Below are positions 45,701 to 64,000 of a stretch of DNA of 64,000 bases, one piece after another. The DNA is from Candolleomyces eurysporus (lineage: Eukaryota; Basidiomycota; Agaricomycetes; Agaricales; Psathyrellaceae), in NCBI GenBank assembly GCA_027579435.1, contig JANBPK010000810.1, forward strand, positions 62,001 to 126,000, read 5' to 3'. Made by a program: the position numbers and the translations under genes. The notes beneath the pieces are model-generated. The model was not told the DNA's origin. It saw nothing but the letters and a program-made list of their open reading frames with translations, and searched no databases. How positions within the stretch are numbered: the stretch's first letter is position 1; each line of letters starts with the position of its first letter.

Positions 45701-47745
45701 CTACAGATGAGGAGCATTGAGCAAGATGCCCATGAGACATCCAGAGAAGGTAGCGGCGATGGGCACGGTCATGACCCAACCCAAGAAGATCCATCCAATA
45801 GCCCGCCAGTTAGTCGCACGCCAGTCACCATTGCACAGCGAGACACCAATGGTGGAACCGACAATGCACATGGTAGTCGACACGGGGATACCGTACTGCG
45901 AGGCGAGGATAACGGTGATCGAGGCTGAAAGCTCCATCGAGAACCCACGGGATGGGGAGTGGAGGGTGATACGGTTACCGAGGACACGCATAATGTTGTA
46001 GCCGTCTGTAGTAAATGGTCAGTCAAAAGTGTAGAGGTTGGTTATTGAGATTAGAGAACGCACAAGTAGCAAGACCGATCACAAGCATACCACCTCCGAA
46101 TGCCAACGCCCAAATGGGAACGGGTGTCCTTGAGCCAGAGATTTCACCAGTATGCCAAACGTGGAAGATGACGGAGAATGGACCGATGGCATTCGAGACA
46201 TCGTTGGCACCATGGGCGAAGGAGGCAGTGCAAGCGGTGAAGACTTGGAGGAAGGAGTAGAGATGTTCGGTATCGTTGGGATATTGCCTAGCACGGGCGT
46301 GAATTTCAGCAATACGCTGAGCGGACCTCTCGCCCTTTCTGGCTTGCATTGCGTGAATGTCGACATTGGCACCATAAGTGAGAACCTTGTAGACGAAGGG
46401 GAAGGCCCGATAACGGACAATAATCCAAAGATTTTTAGGGAGGATCCAGGGTCCTTCAATAGGGTGGGTCTCGACTTCGGTAGCAAGGTTGCTGGCCTGC
46501 GGAGCAGGAGCGGGAGTTTCCTCAATGTCAGAAGACTTCTCCTTCTCGTCGCCCTTTTCAGAGTCGGTATTGTCGCCAGCTAAAACGTTGTTTCAGACCG
46601 CGGTCCGTCCAAAGACAAAAAAACCACTTACCAGGAGCGGTTACTCCGTCAAGTTCATTTCCTTCGCGAANGTGGTAGTTGGGCACGAATTCATGCTCTC
46701 CGGCATCCTCTGGGGCAAGTCGCTTCCAAAGGAGAGGTCCAAGGAAGAAGTGGTACCACCGGATGGCTGGAGAAAATGATTAGAATGGAAAATTCAGATA
46801 TTACGAGCACCACTCACTATGATCCTTCTTGATGACCCTTGCGTGGACGAAGGGGAGCCAGAAAAGAATGGACAGGAGAGCAACCACAGATGCAGTGCCG
46901 AGAATAGCCGCAGCCATGGAACCGGCAGGAAGATCCTTGAGACCCAAACTGGGGGAGCCCTTGTAGATGATGGCCATGGTAAGGATGGCACCAACAAGGA
47001 AGAAGATGACGGGGGCGGTGTACAAGCCCCACCTGGTAGGGTCCTTGCGAACGAGGATGCCATACTTGATCAGAGAGTAGAGGACGATACCAAAGCCAGC
47101 GGAAATGCCGGGAGCTACAATTAGGTGAGTGCGACGGCAAAACACATAACTTTGAAGGGACGAACCGATGCCAAATCCAGCGAAGATGGTAGCAACACCC
47201 TTTCCGCCATTCCAGCCCCATTGGGGAGCATCCCAACCACCAGTAGCAATGCCGACACCAATGACGGAGGAGACAATGGAGTAGGTGGTAGAGACGGGCC
47301 AGGAAAAGCGGGTGGCAATGGTGAGCCATACTATTGAAAAATGTAAGGATGAAAGGATTTGATATGATCACTGGGTGAAACTTACTAGAAGAGGCGACGA
47401 TGGCGCAGGTGAAGGCCAAAAGCTGAACACCAGCGTTGCCTTGGAAAGAGCTTGCAGGGATAATGCCATCCTTGATGGTGGAGGTAACACGGGCACCAAC
47501 AAGGACTGCTCCCAAGAACTCCATGACTGCAGCAGCAAGAACTGCCTGCTTCAAGCTGAGGGACTTGGAAGACACGGAGGCTGAAAAGGAAAAATAAGTA
47601 TGGACGGTCAAGTGAATATGACTAGGATAGGAAACTTACTGGCGAAGCTGTTGGCGACATCGTTCGCGCCAATCATGAAGGCATCGAGGCCGGCGAAGAT
47701 GGTGCCAATGGCGAAGAGGTAATCCCACTGGTGCTGGACAGGCAT
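45701..47745 (-). CDS. PHO89: PiT-family phosphate permease, Pho89 type
   Basis: Plasma-membrane cation-coupled inorganic phosphate symporter. Eight or so exons run from ATG 47745 (MPVQHQWDYLFAIGTIFAGL) to TAG 45701-45703. The two inverted PiT signature motifs are present: IGANDVANSFA near the N terminus and AHGANDVSNAIGP in the second half. Many membrane helices are interrupted by a large cytosolic loop rich in charged residues (DSEKGDEKEKSSDIEETPAP). The C-terminal half contains YGIPVSTTMCIVGSTIGV and ends MGILLNAPHL. An N at 46671 falls in the loop; counted as one base it keeps the frame (NTT codon before REGNELDGVTAP), so it is a real base there. Confidence 0.9.
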
Positions 47746-49744: not shown

Positions 49745-52700
49745 ATGGCGGCCCAGTCAGCACAAGCAGACGGTCCTAGACGCCACCCGCCGCGCCTGAA
49801 CATCATTAACCCCTCGATTTCCTACACCCAACAACAGGCCCAAGCGTTGTACTCCCCTGCTCTTCCGACCGCTATCCACACTGGCTTCGGCGGTGGATTC
49901 CCCCTCCAAACCCCCATGCAATCCTTCTTCCCTGGCCCAGGACAGCCACCACAAGCACCAGGACGCCCCCGGCATGGCCAAAACAGGGCCAGCATTTCCC
50001 ACTATCCGGGAGGGCAGTCCATCGTCACCCCCGTTGCAAGCCACTTCCCTCGACCCTCAATGATGTTGGGCAACGCGGTGCCACCGTCGCCCTTTACCGT
50101 TGGCCCAGGTGGACCTGGTCAACCAGTCGGCCCCATTAACCTGAACAACGGCCCTCCCCATGGGGGACTCCGACCTCACAGAAGACAAATGAGCATAGGT
50201 GGTCCACCCAAAGCCGTTCTCGGTGGTCCTCAGCGTAAGGTCAGCCCTAACCCGGCTGCGGCAGCGGCGACAGCCAACCTGCTCAAGAAGAAAATCAATG
50301 TCAACTTGCCAAAGGAAACGGAAGTAGTGGACGGTGAAGGTGACGACGGCGCAGAGAAGCAGAGCGACGAGCAGACCCAAGACCAAGCTCCCACCACCAA
50401 GAACCGTGTTCCGAAGGAATGGGCTCGCGTTCCCATCTCCATTGCTGAAGGGGAAGCTCGTATGAGCTCCTTTATGCCAATCCCTGATGAGGAGTTGGTC
50501 TCGAGGGAGCCTTTNCCCCCCTGAAGACTGGAGAGCGAGTCTACCGTTATCCATCGACGTGTTTTTGCCCGGAAAGGTTCGTACTTGGATTCGAACGCGT
50601 CTCTACTCTTGAACTCACATTGCTGTATAGGCAACTTGGGACGCCCTCAAGCAGCAAGTCATTGAAGCCAAACTCGAGAAACTCGGTGTCGAACCAGGTT
50701 CTGGTAGCAATGTTCCTCATATTTACGCGCCGCATGCGCGTGCTGCCTCGGTACGTGTATCGTTTTGCCGCATATATTTTGAACTACTCGCTTACTTCTA
50801 CTATTTCCAACCCTCTAGATATCATCTCCTGCCGACCCTGCCTTACTTCTATTCAAGCTGAACAAACTCCAGCAAGCCCAGACCGCTCAATCCCTGTCCC
50901 CCTCGGTCGCCAACTCCAACTCTCTCGCGCCTTCTCCTCAGCCACCTGTTGGACTATCTCCTCCACCCCAGAATCGCCGCCCTTCTCCATCCACCATTGG
51001 TCCCAATGGCCTGAATCGACACGCACATACCATGTCCCTCGCCCGGACGCCTTTCAATCCGTTTGGTCCTTTGGCAGATTTCGCAGACGACTTGGCCAGG
51101 CCTTTGTCGACTGTGTCCGACAGTGGCATCCCTGGATCATCTCCTCTCGCGGATGCAGCCACTGCTTCTCTCAGTGTACCAAGCTTGTCGAGACCAACCA
51201 GCCGACCAGACTTTGCCCGTGGGTTCGGTTTGGATATCCCAGAAGAAGCAGACGAAGAGGCAGAGTTAGACGAGCAAGAAAGGAGAGAGCACGAGCTGCG
51301 CTGGAAGAACCGTCAAGCCAACGACGAAGACGACCAGTCGGAAGTTGACAGGGAAACCGATAATGGGCACGCAGGAGACACCGAAGAAGACGATTACACT
51401 CGAGAGACTGGAGAGGATGGTGAAGAAGACATGGATCTGGACAACGAGACTGAAGCTCCACGGAGTCGAATCCATTCAAGACACGTGTCGAGGCTTTCTG
51501 CAGCCCTTTCTTTGCGTTCTGTGGGTGGCAACTTGAGCGCCATACTTGACTCGAGGAAAGAAGGCGATATCGATGAGATGGAAGCTGGTGATGATAGTCT
51601 CATGGGACGTGAAAGCAGCCCGCCGCCTGCGGGTAAAAGGAGACCACCTTTGCCTACTCTCTTCGGTCACGTTGTCCGCCCCAGCATATCTGCCAATCGC
51701 GAAGACTTGGAAGATGCCATTGCTGTGCAAGAATGGACTGGCTCAGAGGAAGAGGACGGTGGGTTGTCCCAAACTGACGATAGTGACGGTGACCAGGTGG
51801 GTTCTTTGTTCGTTCACTTTTTTCACGTAAATGACACGCTGACACCTCGTTTCTCTACCCTTCCCATATCTATATCCCGACGTTCTTCACACTTCTATTC
51901 GCCTTTGACATTTCCTGATCTGGATCTTCCCAACCCGATAAAATGCCACCCGACCATGATCACGACGCGATCGTAAAATATTGACGTACCATTGGCTATG
52001 AACACGTTGCACCGAACAACAGAGCCTTGGCGAATACTCAAATCCTTCGGACGAAGAGAGGGCACGACATCAGCGCGTGGAGAGGCGCATGCAAAGAAGG
52101 GCTGAGAAGGAAGACGCTAAGCGGAGAAAGTTGTTGTTGAAACAAAGACGTGCCGAGGGGAAGGAAGTGCAAGATCAAGATACCGAGCTCGCTGGTGGCA
52201 AGGCAAACGGAGAGGAATTGATTGTCGACCAACCTCGTCGAATCCCCAACTTCCCGCTTCCTCCCGACAGCAGTCTCCCCTTCTTGCCAGCTCAACTTGA
52301 ACAATATCCTCAGTTCCACCCGTCTGCATATCCCCAGGACGAAAATACAGATCGCGACGAGATTATATCCAACCCAAGTGAAGAGAATCTTTTGATGGGC
52401 AGACATGAATATCGATACCCAGCTCCTGTTGGTGGACAAGCACCTTACCCATCGCACCACTCGTCACATCATCATCCTTATCAGCAGCAGCCGCAGTTCC
52501 TTGGAATTACGCCTTCGGCCAGTCAAGTCGAATTCTACAACGGTGTCCCCCGTTCACCATCTGGATCAAGAGCCCCAATGCCCTTACCCACGATGAATTC
52601 CCATTCCCGGGGCCCATCGGACGGATTGTCGTATACAAGCCACGGGCATCACCAAGGCCAAGGATCCTTTGGACAGCAAGCATCTTCGCCGTATGGCCAT

Positions 52701-55700
52701 GGGTCACAGTATGCCCACGTTGCGCCCCCTCCTATGCCCGTACCCCATTATAATCATCAGCACGGGAACTCATTCGGCCATCATTCGTCCTCTTCCTATG
52801 GTCAAGCACCACCCGCATTCAATGTCGTACCTCAAGCGCCTCAGCCAGAGACCCCCACAGGAAACTCTGCCGCCCGACGAGACTCCCTCAANTCCCTTCG
52901 CCAAGCCTTTCGTCTTTGGCCATACACTCAATGCCAAAGCAGAACCATGGCAGCCTGGTAGCGCAATGCCGGCTGCTGCCGCATCATCCACACCGACATC
53001 TGCTTCTTCCCATTCACGCCTCCCATCTATGGGCAAACCCCTCAACGTCGCTGCACCCGAGTTCAAGCCCCTCAGCATCGCTGCACCCGAGTTCAAACCC
53101 CGCTCAGCGATCCCGACAGAGTCAGAGTTTACGTTCGCGATGCCCACAGCTGCGCCTGGATTCCCTGTCCCTGAGACTGAACCTGCGTTGGCGGTGTTGG
53201 CGGCTGCGTCCGTCGAAAGGGAGAAAGATTTGTACCAGGATGGGTCGCCGATCAAGAAGCAAGGGAGAGAGAAGAGGCCAAGATTGGGTTCGAAGCGCGA
53301 CTCACGAGATGAAGACGAGCAGGAGGTTGAGTTCATCGAAAAAGAGATTGCAGACGAGGCGGCTCGGGAACAACAGGAGGAAGAGGCAGAGGTTTCTCGC
53401 GTAGAGGAGGGTGATAGTATGACGTCGTTCAGGTTCCCTGCTGGCCCGTCCGTTGTGAGCCCCAAGATGATTCGGAAGGCTCATTCGCATCAGCCTCAGG
53501 CGATGGTGTCGAGTTTCGCGGCCGGAATACCTGTGTCGACTTCTGTGTCGATGGATGGACGAGCGGAGGATGTCAATGCTGATGGAGAGTCTGGAAGCGA
53601 GTTCGGTCTGGATGAGGTGGATAGCGAAGAGGAGGATAAGGAGAATAGGAGGGATACGCCTGTGCCTGTGTCTACTTCGGCATCCATGATGATGTCCAAG
53701 TCCTTCTCACCTGGACGGCAGACGGAGAACGACAGTATGGGTGACGAAACTCAGGAGACTACCAGGTCGCCCGCGAAACCATCCCAAGACGTGTCGGCCA
53801 TTACAAACGAGTCCGAATTCGACGATGACGAGAATGTTCAAGAGCTGATCATTCCCCCCACCCTTCCCAACACCAACCTCTCCGCTACATTCCCTACTTC
53901 AGCGACCACCAAAACATCGTTTGGACCCGTCAATCTTTCGCCTATCACAGCCGGTGGCAAACCTCGCCGTGCTCCAATTCCTCTCGACTTCAAGCACCCT
54001 ACCGCTACTGCACCTGCAGGCTTGTTCAAGGCACTCGTGCAGAATGTCGTGGCTCAAAACAACGCCAAAGATGGTATGTTTCTTCTTTTACCTTTTCTTC
54101 CAAATCGTGCTCACAGTCTATTGCGCATTCCTCAGCTGCCAATGCTGCCAATGCTGCTCCAAGTTCTGCGTTCAGCGACGATCGTACTCGAGCTGGTGTG
54201 CGCTCACGGATGAGCTCAAGGGAAATCTTCGAGATGCACCATATGAGCCGGCCATCGATGGACGACCTGAACGTTGCAAAGATCTCGGGCACTGGCATTT
54301 CCTCGTCGAGGTCTGCTGCCAACACTAGTGCTGCCAACAGGAGTATCCATCTCCCCAACTTTACTGGCACCGTCGCAAACCGAGGACGAAACGTCACAGA
54401 GCCTGGTCCCAGCTTGTCCAGAGACGAAGACGACGTGTTTGGTGCTCGCAATACCAACGCCAGCGGGAAGGGTGTTCACAGGCGCAGACGGAGCTCGCTA
54501 CCTGATCAGCTTCATGACGAGTCGGCATCTGAAACCGAGGAGAAGACGGAAGACTTTGACAGCGACGAGGAGAACCGCCACACCAGCTCGAGCATCAACG
54601 TGAACCCAAGCCACACCCTCCATATCTCGAATTCTGGACGGCGTATCCTTCATTCGCTGCCTATTTCCAGGAGTACAAGTCCTGAGGAGAGCTCGAGGAT
54701 GCAGCAGATGAGGAATGGCGGTCTCAGTCCTTCAGCTTCGGCAGTCCGTCCAAGGGATCTTACCAGTCGATTGGAGCTGCACGCCCTCTTTGAAGAGGTT
54801 CTTACGAGGGTTCTGGACGAGAGATTGGCCGAGTTCAAGCGTGACCTTACCACCGCGTCCGGCAACGGCGTCGCGTCTTCCGTCCCTGAAGCCATGCTGT
54901 CCGAAGTCATTTGCCTCTTCCGTGCCCAGTTGCAAGATTCAGCTGCGAAGAGCTTGGAAGACACCACGATGGAGGCAAGAGGCGAGATGGACATGCTCCT
55001 GATCAAGGATATGTTGGAGGAGAGTCAGCGAGAGGTTGTTGGAGTAGTGAAGAATGTCGTCGACGAGCACCTAAGGCAAGCCTTCACGGCTGTGCGCGAA
55101 GCAAGTGAAGGTGGACGAAGCTCCGAGATCATTGTCGGCGAGATGAGAGCGGTGGTTGAGAACGCTGCCACAAGAACTGTTCACGCCGTCGTCGAAACCG
55201 TCCGGGCTAGACATGACGCCGCCGTTGCCAGCCAGCAAAACGAGATCCTCCTCGACGAAATGGTAGCGACACTTACGCCTCTACTCCAAGGTCTACGAGC
55301 CGAGCCCATTGACTACGAGTTCTTGACGACCCAGTTGGCTCAAGCAGTCAAGCCACATATCTCGCAACTCATCGACCTGGCTTCGGATAAGCGGGAAACT
55401 GCAGGACTCATCATCGATGCACTTGTTCCTACCCTCGTCAACAGCCTCGTGCCAAGTCTGGTGCCCACCCTCACCCCCACACTCATCTCGAACTTGGCTC
55501 CTAGGCTGGTAGACGCGTTGGTGGATAGAATGAGGGCTGAAAGCGAAGAGACGAGATCGGGCATGGTCAGGGAAGTGAGGAAGGCTGTTGAAGGCGTGGA
55601 TGCCATCGAGATCCGGGAGCGTGTTGCGGACTTGGTTGTGGAGAGGTTGGATGCGAGATTGGACGCCCGTGATAAGAGCTTTATCCACGCTGTCAACTCC

Positions 55701-57656
55701 AGCGTCACCAACGTGGTGGAGAAGGTCTCTGAGCGACTGAACACGGAAGCGAATGCCGGGAAGCAGCAGGGTTTGTCAGAAGAGGACTTGAAGGGCGTTG
55801 AGCAGAGGGTTGTGCAGGGCGTGAAGGAGGCTGTTGCAAACACCAACCAGATCCCCGAGATCTTGCAGGACTTGTTCGGCAAGCTTGACGATGAGAAGAG
55901 GGCGTCCGATGCACGAGCACTGGAGTTGGAGGCTCGCAGCCAAGAGACCAACGCCAAGGTGTTGCAGGCAGTTGAGAGCGTCGCTGTGAAGGCTGTGTCA
56001 AAGGAGGAGATTAGCAAGCTTGAGAAAGCTATCTCTGACGCTAGCGCCGAAAGAGCTTCCGCCAACTCAGCTGCTTCCTCAGAACTCAAGGCTGCTCTTG
56101 ATGCCCTCGTCGCTGAAAACAAGGCTCTCGCTGAGAAGAACGCAGAGCTGGTGGCTTCACAGAATGCTATGGCCGCCAAGCTCGCTTCCCTCCCCGATAC
56201 ACTCAATTCGAGCATTGTGAACCTGCAGAACGGCATCGTAGAGCTGATAGTGTCGAGGGACGTACCAAAGAAGGATCTGGACGACCTGAAGAAACTGAAT
56301 TCCGAATACCAGGTTCAATTGACCAAGGCACGAGCTCAGCATGGCCAAGTTCGGGTGGAGAAGGACGTCATAGGCGAGAAATTGGCAGGCGTAGAATCCG
56401 AGAGGGACAGGTTGCGAGCCAAAGTCGCGGAGTTGGAGGACAGCAAGAAGCAAGAAGTCGCTGCTGTTGAAGCGAGGAAGACTGAGCTCGATGAGGCGCT
56501 TGCGAACGCTTTGGGCAGGCTACAGGCGTCAGATATTGCCACACAGACGCATCAGCAGAAGATCGCCGAGTTGGAGAAGATGGTCAAGGAGACTAATGCT
56601 GAGAAGGCTGCGCTCAAGACCAAGGCGGATGCTCTTGAGATTCGCGCTACGGTCGCCGACCGAGAGAAGGAGGCTGCGACGTCGATGCTTGAGACCGTTC
56701 GCGGAGAGCAATCGCAATGGGGAATGCTCCACCAGGCCACTGAGAAGATCGATATGCTCACCAAGTTGATCGGGGAAGCTGAAAGCGATGAGCTCAAGGA
56801 CCTTCGTCGGTACCAAGATAGAACCAAGAATCTCGAGAGCGATCATGCGGCCCTTCAGAAACGCTTCAAGGATCTCGAGACTAGAATGGCCAATAGCGAT
56901 AAAGTGACGGCGACTGCCAAAGCCAGTCTTTCTCAGGCTCAGCAACGGTCCTCGGAGTGGGAGAAAATGGCGAAGCAGTATGAAGGGGAATTAGAGATGG
57001 TCAAGACGAAATTAGATCACGCTGAGCAATCCTACAGCCAGCTCGACGCCGATCACTCTTCGCTCCAAATCCAATTCGAGGAACAAGGAGCCGACGCTAG
57101 GCTCAGCAAGGTAAGCTTTTCTGCAGAGTGGAGTACGAATTGTGAACTAACTTGCCGAAAGGATCGAGAGAACAGGTTGCGCGACCAAGTCAGTGCCCTG
57201 GAAGCCAAGGTTGTCTTATTGCAAGATGAGCTACTCAAGGCTAAGATGGGGTCTCGGATGGCGACGACGACATATCGCAGCACTACCAATGGCAGCACCA
57301 GCCACCCACCTCCCCGTCCCGACTCTCGTTCAAGTGTAAACACCGTCAACGGCAAAGACGATCGCCGAATTTCCTCCTATTCTCCAGCAAGCAACGCGGA
57401 CGCCCCTCCTCAGGCCAGCGTTCGGGATTCTATCCATGCGCCTACCAACTCGACTTCCGTTCCCAGGTATCCGAGTGGTGTGTCAGCCAGCATCCATGCA
57501 CCCAGGAGCCGATATCCCAACCTTGGACCCGTTTCAACACCCAAGACACCGTTGAGGAAGTCTGGGTATCCATCATACAGAGCCAGTGCACCCAGCCCTG
57601 CGCCGAGTGCGGTGAGTGCAGCGCCAACTCAGGGTGAGGATGGCTGGTGGGAGTAG
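49745..57656 (+). CDS. Upa2-like multi-PAM2 scaffold of endosomal mRNA transport
   Basis: Six exons (49745-50576, 50631-50750, 50819-51796, 52023-54073, 54136-57110, 57162-57656) give 2482 residues once the Ns at 50515 and 52892 are dropped; total length is then divisible by three. A long disordered Pro/Gly/Ser-rich N-terminal half contains four clustered PAM2-like motifs: LNPFAKPF (932), LNAKAEPW (945), LNVAAPEFKP (983) and LSIAAPEFKP (993). PAM2 binds the MLLE domain of poly(A)-binding protein. From about residue 1500 the protein is mainly amphipathic helix and coiled coil. It ends GEDGWWE, with GWW at 2479-2481. Several PAM2 motifs, a C-terminal coiled coil and a terminal GWW are the described layout of Ustilago Upa2, a core component of mRNA transport on endosomes. 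Orthology is inferred from this layout. Confidence 0.75.
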
Positions 57657-61739: not shown

Positions 61740-64000
61740 ATGCATCTTTACCGCCATCTATTAGCGCTGGTCGTGATAATCTCATCATGCTCGTTGCAAG
61801 CCCTAGGTAAGTCGTCCTCGCACTGCCGTCGCCGTCGAGACCTGACACAGTCCCCAGCTCATAGCACGCATGCTCCTCTCCTCAAGCGGGCCATTAATCC
61901 TACGACACAAGCTCTCGAAATCCTGCCACGACGGGGAAGCACCCTTCTGGATATCACCGATCTCCACAGGCGCTCAGCACCTCCGCCGCCGCACACTCTT
62001 CGATATGACGACTCGTTCCGCCTCACAATATCAGCATTCGATGATACCTTCCATCTCCATCTACGACCCAATGATCATTTGATCCATCCCGCTGCTCGAA
62101 TCAACTACTACGGCCTCGATTCCGATGGCAGCTACACAGTCCTGCGCACGGAACCCCTTCTGAGGGAGACTGTCAAGGCCTACATGGGTGAAGTCGTCGC
62201 CGCTGACCATTCACCAACCAGAATGCGTGAAGACATCGCTGGCATCGCTCCCCAGCCACACCCCGCTGACCTTGGCTGGGCCCGCATCACTGTTCATCGC
62301 CTGGGTGACAACTTTGCTCCCGTCTATGAGGGCGCCTTTTCCGCTAATGGTGTCGTCTATCACATCTCTACGAAAGAGAACTACCTCCGCAACAAGCATT
62401 CTTTGGATCCTGATGTTGTTCGCCCTCTTGGCAGTGGTGATGAGCATCTCGTTATCTGGAAAGACAGCGATGCGATGACGCCCGAAGAAGAGCACCTCGT
62501 CAAGACAGGCTCAAAGCCCACTGGACCTATCGCGACTCCCATGAGTTGTGCCCATGACACCCTGCCCTACAATACCAACCCTGAGTTGAATCCCACTCTG
62601 CGCAACCCTTACGTAGACAGTTCGTGGCTCGGTCATCTTCTCAACCCACAACCGAACGGCACCCTGTACCGCCGAGATGATGCCCCGACAGGTGGCAGTG
62701 GAATGGGAACCAAGTATGTCCTCCATCGAAGCTAATTACTTTTACTAATTGAAATGCTGCCAGCTTCGTCGAATTCATCGGTCAGAACACTGGTTGTCCC
62801 ACAGAACAAAAGATTGTAGGTTCATCTGTTTATCCGAGATGCTCCCGCTCTAAAGTTATATTATCAAGATCTACATGGGCGTCGCTGCCGACTGCGAGTA
62901 CGTCAGGAAGTACAATGGCCAGGACAATGCAAAGCAGCAGATTCTCAACACTTGGAACACGGCGAGTGCCACCTTCAAGGTGCGTTCTCATATGACAGAT
63001 GATATCCAAGTGATATGTGCTAATTGATGATGGTTGTCGTAGACCACATTCAACGTGGGTCTGGGAATTACAACCCTCAATGTTCAGGATTCTACGTGAG
63101 TATCTGTACAATGAAAGGATCATCCCTTGCTCGACCTCAATTTCCGATTAGATGCCCATCCGGTTCCACCGACCTACCTTGGAACGTGCCGTGCAGCTCC
63201 GCCAATCTCAACTCTCGACTCTCGCTATTCTCTGCCTGGCGTGGAACCCTTGGCGACGACGGCAATGGCCTCTGGCATCTTATGAGTGGTTGCCCTACTG
63301 GTGCCGAGGTTGGTATTGCTTGGCTCGCAACTATGTAAGGATTCCGGTTACCTTGCCCCTTGTCATCTGATACTCACTTTCAATTCCTCAGTTGCCAAAC
63401 AGCGGCAGGCGGCAACCCCGGTCAAGTCGTATCTGGAACTGCGGTTTCCACTTCAGGTCGAACGGAGTGGCAAGTCGTGGCACATGAGATCGGCCACAAC
63501 TTTGGTGCTATCGTAAGTCGCTTTTTTTGCGACCTCTCGCTGGATGCATACTCATTTATTTCTCTCTCATTAGCATGACGTATGTATTGGTTCTCTAATC
63601 GTGCAGAGACTTGTTACAAATGCTTAACCTTTGACTTAGTGTGCTGAAGGGTGTTCTCAAGGGGGTTCCAGCTGCTGCCCGCTAAACCCGACCACATGCG
63701 ACGCACAAGGCCGTTTCATCATGAGCCCTGTCGCACAGGCCGGTGAAAAGGTCTTTTCACCCTGCAGTTTGGGCAACGTCTGTAAGTTTGGGCCGCATTC
63801 ATTAATTTCGTCTACCGGTACGGAAACAGATGCTGATATGGTATTTTTTGAAATAATTTCCAGGTTCTTTGATGCAAGGACGCGGTAATAGCAAAACCGA
63901 CACCTCATGCCTTGTCGACCCCGATTCGACTCGATCTATCCTCTCTTTGCAGATGTGCGGGAACGGCATTGTCGAAGAAGGTGAAGATTGTGACCCAGGC
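61740..64000 (+). CDS. ADAM-type zinc metalloprotease, 5' part (runs off the window)
   Basis: Secreted or membrane-bound metzincin. Exons are 61740-61806, 61858-62713, 62764-62815, 62869-62979, 63043-63095, 63152-63334, 63392-63512, 63574-63579, 63640-63781 and 63864 onward, all in phase. A signal peptide (HLLALVVIISSCSLQAL) precedes a prodomain with a dibasic LLKRA site. The catalytic domain starts near FVEFIGQNTG. The zinc site HEIGHNFGAIHD (472-483) has all three His and the catalytic Glu, and FIMSPV is the Met-turn. A disintegrin-type start (CGNGIVEEGEDCDPG) is reached at the window edge. The third zinc-binding His lies on a 6-nt exon. The first intron is 51 bp and leaves the frame open if unspliced. 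Confidence 0.88.
63574..63579 (+). other. 6-nt microexon encoding the His-Asp of the ADAM zinc site
   Basis: CATGAC lies between a TCATTAG acceptor and a GTATGT donor. Including it gives HEIGHNFGAI-HD-CAEGC in frame; skipping it keeps the frame but removes the third zinc ligand. Confidence 0.75.

What the first reader, a model, noticed from the sequence alone, without database searches (positions are those of the whole stretch)
49745..57656. A Upa2-like endosomal mRNA-transport scaffold in a mushroom-type genome
Four PAM2-like motifs cluster within about 70 residues (932-1002), followed by more than 800 residues of mainly helical sequence and a terminal GWW (2479-2481). This matches the architecture described for Ustilago maydis Upa2, including motif number, coiled coil and C-terminal GWW, although overall sequence is low-complexity and easily missed by similarity search.
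Basis: partly seen in the sequence, partly recalled or inferred. Interest (0 to 1): 0.8.

Follow-up and report, generated by a model that had tools for sequence, protein, structure and literature searches.

The report
Mushroom Upa2-like mRNA transport scaffold
A mushroom gene encodes a giant protein that looks like Upa2, a scaffold that helps carry messenger RNAs on moving vesicles; the likeness is real and the gene is widespread in mushrooms, but the kind of protein is already known.

Summary
Six exons (49745-57656, +) give one 2,482-residue frame once two stray N letters are dropped; four PAM2-like motifs lie at 932-1002 and GWW at 2479-2481. Three motifs within 75 residues never occurred in 5,000 shuffles.

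Protein queries hit only this locus in the genome. The anonymous family spans Agaricomycetes and Dacrymycetes; 137 relatives were fetched. GWW lies in the last 12 residues of 114 of 137, motif 1 in 133, a canonical PAM2 in 134. Motifs 2 and 4 are poorly shared, so the count of four is no evidence of descent from Ustilago Upa2. The genome also encodes Pab1 with a KITGMLLE groove and an Upa1-like protein (PAM2L-ankyrin-PAM2L-FYVE-RING).

Best explanation: the mushroom Upa2 counterpart, a Pab1-binding coiled-coil scaffold of endosomal mRNA transport. Not shown: homology to U. maydis Upa2 (no smut protein among listed hits), an Rrm4 gene, any binding. A paper says core components were already identified in Coprinopsis and Amanita. 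Unreported as far as I saw: a recurrent FxF-FxP-FxF motif order. New member of a known kind.

The parts
49745..50576 (+). exon 1, codons 1-277; one stray N at 50515
   Evidence: N site reads through in P0001
50631..50750 (+). exon 2
50819..51796 (+). exon 3
50661..50887 (+). strongly conserved N-terminal block, residues about 288-340 (contains PHARAASISSPADPALLLFKLNKLQQ); spans the intron 50751-50818; candidate effector region (inferred)
   Evidence: 30-residue windows starting at 291-311 have mean conservation 0.88-0.90 in 35 aligned proteins
52023..54073 (+). exon 4; one stray N at 52892
52887..52920 (+). PAM2-like motif 1, LNPFAKPFVFG (residues 932-942), FxF class; LNxxAxPFxFG is found in 133 of 137 relatives
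52927..52956 (+). PAM2-like motif 2, LNAKAEPWQP (945-954), W variant; among 35 aligned proteins otherwise only in E. angulata
53041..53070 (+). PAM2 motif 3, LNVAAPEFKP (983-992), fits the canonical consensus; L[NS]xxAxEF[KR]P is found in 134 of 137 relatives
   Evidence: consensus from PMC9249222 (passage)
53071..53100 (+). PAM2-like motif 4, LSIAAPEFKP (993-1002), a tandem copy of motif 3; similar tandem copies occur in a few other relatives (e.g. P0007, P0107, P0130)
54136..57110 (+). exon 5, helix-prone region
55311..55421 (+). highly conserved block, residues about 1719-1755 (DYEFLTTQLAQAVKPHISQLIDLASDKRETAGLIIDA)
55734..57212 (+). predicted coiled coil, residues about 1860-2335 (crosses intron 57111-57161); no proline in 2038-2366
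   Evidence: heptad periodicity z 3.1 and 5.3 against shuffles; no structure prediction was possible
57162..57656 (+). exon 6 with stop
57642..57650 (+). C-terminal GWW (2479-2481), followed by one residue and the stop

Best explanation
This is the mushroom counterpart of Upa2, a dimerising scaffold of endosomal mRNA transport. [quoted passage not shown] the coiled coil at about 1860-2335 pairs two copies; the terminal GWW attaches the protein to moving early endosomes; conserved N-terminal blocks act as the effector region. Upa1, with its FYVE domain, anchors the same particle to the membrane. Shown here by computation: gene structure, motifs, heptad pattern, GWW, wide conservation, no second copy found, presence of Pab1 and of an Upa1-like gene. 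Inferred: every binding and localisation step.
For: PMC9249222 (passages) describes U. maydis Upa2 as a dimerising scaffold with four PAM2 motifs and a C-terminal GWW crucial for endosomal binding; its coiled coil and size I take from the finding and from recall. Motif cluster beyond chance. GWW in the last 12 residues of 114 of 137 relatives, GWY in 18 more, neither in 5. Motifs 1 and 3 in 133 and 134 of 137; motif 1's conservation is reached by 1 of 610 11-mers of residues 660-1280, which include itself, and motif 3's by 4. Pfam PAM2 over its cut-off in three of the five relatives scanned whole, P0033, P0107 and P0126, and below it in P0001 and P0136. Heptad signal. Pab1: three RRM matches and one MLLE over the cut-off (70.9 bits) on contig C1076, with KITGMLLE. 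Upa1-like gene on contig C1135: acidic stretches with FVYP and FHYP (FxxP with Tyr, as described for PAM2L), ankyrin repeats, FYVE (42.4 bits for one exon, 79.5 on a hand-joined peptide), RING (44.5 bits, joined peptide). Own-genome protein queries hit only this locus.
Against: No smut protein among the hits listed: 120 of 235, 15 of 15, 32 of 32; descent from U. maydis Upa2 is thus not shown. No Rrm4 found: Pfam MLLE matched only the Pab1 locus even at E 10 (two candidates scored), and none of the RRM loci that I looked at resembled Rrm4 (about 17 of the 109 RRM matches' loci, and part of the output was cut). Motif 1 lacks the Pro of the PAM2 consensus, and the window's PAM2 stretch is below Pfam's cut-off. 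In U. [quoted passage not shown]
Confidence: 0.75

Rival explanations
1. A Pab1-binding coiled-coil scaffold of Agaricomycotina that is not descended from Upa2 and reached PAM2 motifs and a GWW tail independently; it could act at polysomes, RNA granules or septa instead of endosomes.
For: No smut protein among the listed hits; two of the four motifs are poorly shared; the commonest motif order among relatives is FxF-FxP-FxF, in 84 of 137.
Against: Motifs, long coil and GWW at the very end all agree, and an Upa1-like gene with two PAM2L-type stretches is in the same genome. Word-based search cannot reach very diverged relatives. PMC7550108 (passage) reports Upa2 and Rrm4 as missing in ascomycetes, in line with a basidiomycete protein.
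Confidence: 0.17
2. A vesicle or Golgi tether of the Uso1/EEA1 kind, with the PAM2-like matches irrelevant.
For: Three of the 120 relatives listed carry the UniRef name Transport protein USO1 (P0029, P0040, P0076); long coiled coil.
Against: The name probably stems from the coil alone (inference); no tether domain over a Pfam cut-off in exon 5 or in the five relatives scanned whole; motifs 1 and 3 and GWW are among the most conserved positions.
Confidence: 0.05
3. Chance motif cluster in a low-complexity protein.
For: Pro+Gly content is 0.12-0.24 before residue 1530; Pfam PAM2 below cut-off in the window; motifs 2 and 4 are poorly conserved.
Against: No shuffle of 5,000 had three motifs within 75 residues; relatives have 2.78 motifs per protein against 0.07 in shuffles.
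Confidence: 0.03

Closest known systems
Upa2 of Ustilago maydis (Jankowski et al. 2019, not held; described in passages of PMC9249222, PMC10688622 and PMC12852828)
   Same: Several PAM2 motifs, C-terminal GWW, Pab1 and an Upa1-like gene in the same genome; large size and coiled coil (Upa2's own from the finding and recall)
   Different: No sequence similarity demonstrated; the family has an FxF motif class; motifs 2 and 4 of the window are poorly shared
Anonymous relatives such as Coprinopsis cinerea CC1G_08648 (P0002) and Ephemerocybe angulata DFP72DRAFT_838609 (P0001)
   Same: Same family; E. angulata 59% identity over 100% of the query
   Different: Motif 4 is absent from P0001, motifs 2 and 4 from P0002; named only hypothetical protein
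Other PAM2 proteins (ataxin-2, eRF3, Pan3, LARP4, Makorin; partly named in PMC9249222 and PMC12852828, otherwise recalled)
   Same: Carry a PAM2 motif that binds a MLLE domain
   Different: None that I can recall is a 2,000-residue coiled-coil protein ending in GWW; not compared in any call

Membership tests
Upa2 | Several PAM2 motifs | tested here: met
   Four PAM2-like in 932-1002, motif 3 canonical; motifs 1 and 3 in 133 and 134 of 137 relatives. Consensus from PMC9249222.
Upa2 | Exactly four PAM2 motifs as a shared inherited feature (not treated as defining) | tested here: not met
   Motifs 2 and 4 are poorly shared; per relative, 93 have three matches, 36 two, 6 four, 1 five, 1 one.
Upa2 | Long coiled coil allowing dimerisation | tested here: met
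Upa2 | C-terminal GWW | tested here: met
   Residues 2479-2481 of 2482; 114 of 137 relatives GWW, 18 GWY, 5 neither.
Upa2 | Sequence homology to U. maydis Upa2 | tested here: inconclusive
   whose query lengths admit only proteins above about 2,106 and 1,986 residues, listed no smut protein; one search listed 120 of 235 hits. I had no U. maydis Upa2 sequence; its length of about 2,120 is recalled.
Upa2 | N-terminal effector domain (recalled from the Upa2 abstract) | not tested
   A conserved N-terminal block exists, but there was no U. maydis sequence to compare.
Upa2 | Binds Pab1 MLLE; shuttles on Rab5 endosomes; needed for hyphal mRNA transport | not testable with these tools
   Bench experiments needed.
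Upa2 | No better candidate elsewhere in the genome | tested here: inconclusive
   Queries from this protein hit only this locus, so there is no paralogue; a search with U. maydis Upa2 itself could not be run.
Endosomal mRNA transport machinery (context) | Pab1 with PAM2-binding MLLE | tested here: met
   Contig C1076.
Endosomal mRNA transport machinery (context) | Upa1: PAM2L motifs, ankyrin repeats, FYVE, RING | tested here: met
   Contig C1135; PAM2L by pattern only; no L[NS]xxAxx[FW] match in the stretch read, whereas U. maydis Upa1 also has a PAM2.
Endosomal mRNA transport machinery (context) | Rrm4 with three RRMs and three MLLE domains | tested here: inconclusive

The most novel reading that the evidence does not exclude
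The family carries two classes of PAM2-like motif, in the order FxF-FxP-FxF in 84 of 137 proteins. The FxF class (LNPxAKPFVFG and LNxxAxPFTFxG) departs from the PAM2 consensus at the last position, yet its first copy is kept as strongly as the canonical motif. It may be a separate ligand class, for instance for MLLE1 or MLLE2 of Rrm4, whose binding motifs are unknown (PMC12852828), so that the scaffold would bridge Pab1 and Rrm4 directly.
Probability: 0.1. Interest if true: 0.6.

Novelty: new member of a known kind. Interest (0 to 1): 0.35.

Why it matters
Endosomal mRNA transport is known in most detail from one smut fungus. A family of plausible Upa2 counterparts in mushroom-forming and related fungi gives a large alignment for asking which parts of the scaffold are kept. 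[quoted passage not shown]

Tried and rejected
Two early gene models with a wrong acceptor for exon 4. Pfam on raw exon references failed on stop codons, because the exon reference that I gave was out of frame. A genome scan for a terminal GWW codon pattern gave 77 sites against 89 for the control pattern, so it is uninformative. Rrm4 search: MLLE profile, RRM profile with 109 matches, a look at about 17 of those loci, which by eye were other RNA-binding proteins or not interpretable (output of 44 cut), and a KITGMLLE-like DNA pattern with four matches, one of them Pab1; the one other I read did not encode a MLLE, two were not read. Rrm4 structures were not among the 24 PDB sequences matched from the Pab1 MLLE. 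A PDB search with a stitched PAM2 peptide gave nothing. Promoter and tRNA scans are of no use here. Jankowski 2019 and Muentjes 2021 are not held (one search used a wrong DOI of mine); Mueller 2019 was not looked up (my note says not held, which is wrong). Considered and dropped: ataxin-2, eRF3, Pan3 and LARP identities (on recalled features only).
Full report
Gene and observation. Six exons between 49745 and 57656 (+), joined over five GT..AG introns of 51-226 bases, give one open frame of 2,482 residues. Two single N letters, at 50515 and 52892, have to be dropped; each acts as a one-base insertion, and the frame reads through both places in the protein of Ephemerocybe angulata. The four motifs start at residues 932, 945, 983 and 993, and GWW is at 2479-2481, as reported. 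In 5,000 shuffles of the whole protein the pattern L[NS]xxAxx[FW] appears 0.07 times on average; none had three within 75 residues and one had two. Pfam's PAM2 model alone would not have called it: 15.9 bits against a cut-off of 20, on motif 4.

Family. A search with the whole protein reported 235 relatives at E <= 0.001, of which 120 were listed; where named they are Agaricomycetes (my reading of the names), led by E. angulata at 59% identity over 100% of the query. Two further searches used longer queries, made of family consensus plus padding, to leave out the many proteins under about 2,000 residues. They added Serendipita, Rhizoctonia, Ceratobasidium, Tulasnella and two Calocera species, the last from Dacrymycetes. 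Together 137 proteins were fetched. GWW lies in the last 12 residues of 114 of 137, GWY in 18, neither in 5; four of these five have unrelated tails that may be annotation errors, and one ends in GWIL. LNxxAxPFxFG is in 133 of 137 and L[NS]xxAxEF[KR]P in 134.

Which motifs are kept. In a 35-row alignment that includes the window, motif 1 has mean column conservation 0.93, reached by 1 of 610 11-mers of residues 660-1280 (itself included); motif 3 has 0.88 (4 of 610), motif 2 has 0.32 (256 of 610) and motif 4 has 0.04 (599 of 610). A W-type motif 2 occurs otherwise only in E. angulata among the 35. Motif 4 is a tandem copy of motif 3; comparable tandem copies occur in a few other relatives, such as P0007, P0107 and P0130. 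Among the 137 relatives the commonest arrangement is FxF, FxP, FxF, in 84; the window has no FxF motif downstream of motif 4. The number four is therefore a local state and no argument for descent from U. maydis Upa2.

Other conserved parts. Blocks near residues 288-340, 1719-1755 and 1813-1840 are conserved among Agaricomycetes, and much of them is shared with Tulasnella. Heptad periodicity of large hydrophobics stands out at 1860-2000 (z 3.1) and 2000-2335 (z 5.3); the other seven segments tested lie between -0.6 and 1.4. No proline lies between 2038 and 2366.

Context in the genome. The window lies in a 65.9 Mb assembly of 1,296 contigs. Two queries from the protein hit only its own locus. 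Pab1 is on contig C1076, with three RRM matches and one MLLE match over Pfam's cut-off, containing KITGMLLE; this MLLE matches a solved PABP1 MLLE domain at E 5e-21. Contig C1135 encodes, on one strand, an acidic stretch with FVYP, ankyrin repeats, an acidic stretch with FHYP, a FYVE domain (42.4 bits for one exon, 79.5 on a hand-joined peptide) and a RING (44.5 bits on a joined peptide). A third FxYP, in a basic context, lies in the neighbouring stretch L060. PMC9249222 describes U. maydis Upa1 with ankyrin repeats, FYVE, RING and acidic PAM2L motifs of FxxP spacing (passages), and PMC12852828 a critical tyrosine in PAM2L (passage). The C1135 gene fits this, except that no PAM2 pattern was found in the stretch read. 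Rrm4 was not found; this is inconclusive, since only part of the RRM loci was looked at.

Interpretation. The best reading is a mushroom counterpart of Upa2: a dimerising scaffold that binds Pab1 through PAM2-like motifs and endosomes through GWW. It works like Upa2 with good probability. Whether it is Upa2 by descent was not settled: no smut protein appeared among the listed hits of three searches, and I had no U. maydis Upa2 sequence. What I say of Upa2's effector domain, size and coiled coil rests on recall and on the finding.

Novelty. [quoted passage not shown] 2019, which I did not look up. PMC7550108 (passage) says Upa2 and Rrm4 are missing in ascomycetes. The finding is thus a further member of a known kind. 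None of my eight paper searches asked for the FxF motif class directly, and the two key papers were not read, so I can say only that I did not see the FxF-FxP-FxF order described in the passages I read. [quoted passage not shown] maydis (PMC9249222, passage).

Noticed in passing
window 37430, 39119, 46671, 50515, 52892, 57762: Six isolated N letters; the two inside this gene's coding exons each act as a one-base insertion that breaks the frame, as if left by assembly polishing. The other four were not analysed.
   Followed up: partly
G000 contig C1135, about 87500-97400 (L059): Upa1-like gene with two acidic FxYP stretches, ankyrin repeats, FYVE and RING, and between ankyrin repeats and FYVE a Trp/Arg-rich stretch without a Pfam match over a cut-off.
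   Followed up: partly
G000 contigs C340, C1131, C1268, C1116 and others: Several RRM loci recur on different contigs with equal or near-equal scores, as in an assembly that keeps both haplotypes; the gene of this finding was hit only once.
   Followed up: no
window 61740-62735 (+): Open reading frame with a reprolysin-family (M12B) propeptide match of 33.1 bits, suggesting a metalloprotease gene downstream.
   Followed up: no
window 46817-47611 (-): Piece of a PHO4-family phosphate transporter gene, 55.8 bits.
   Followed up: no
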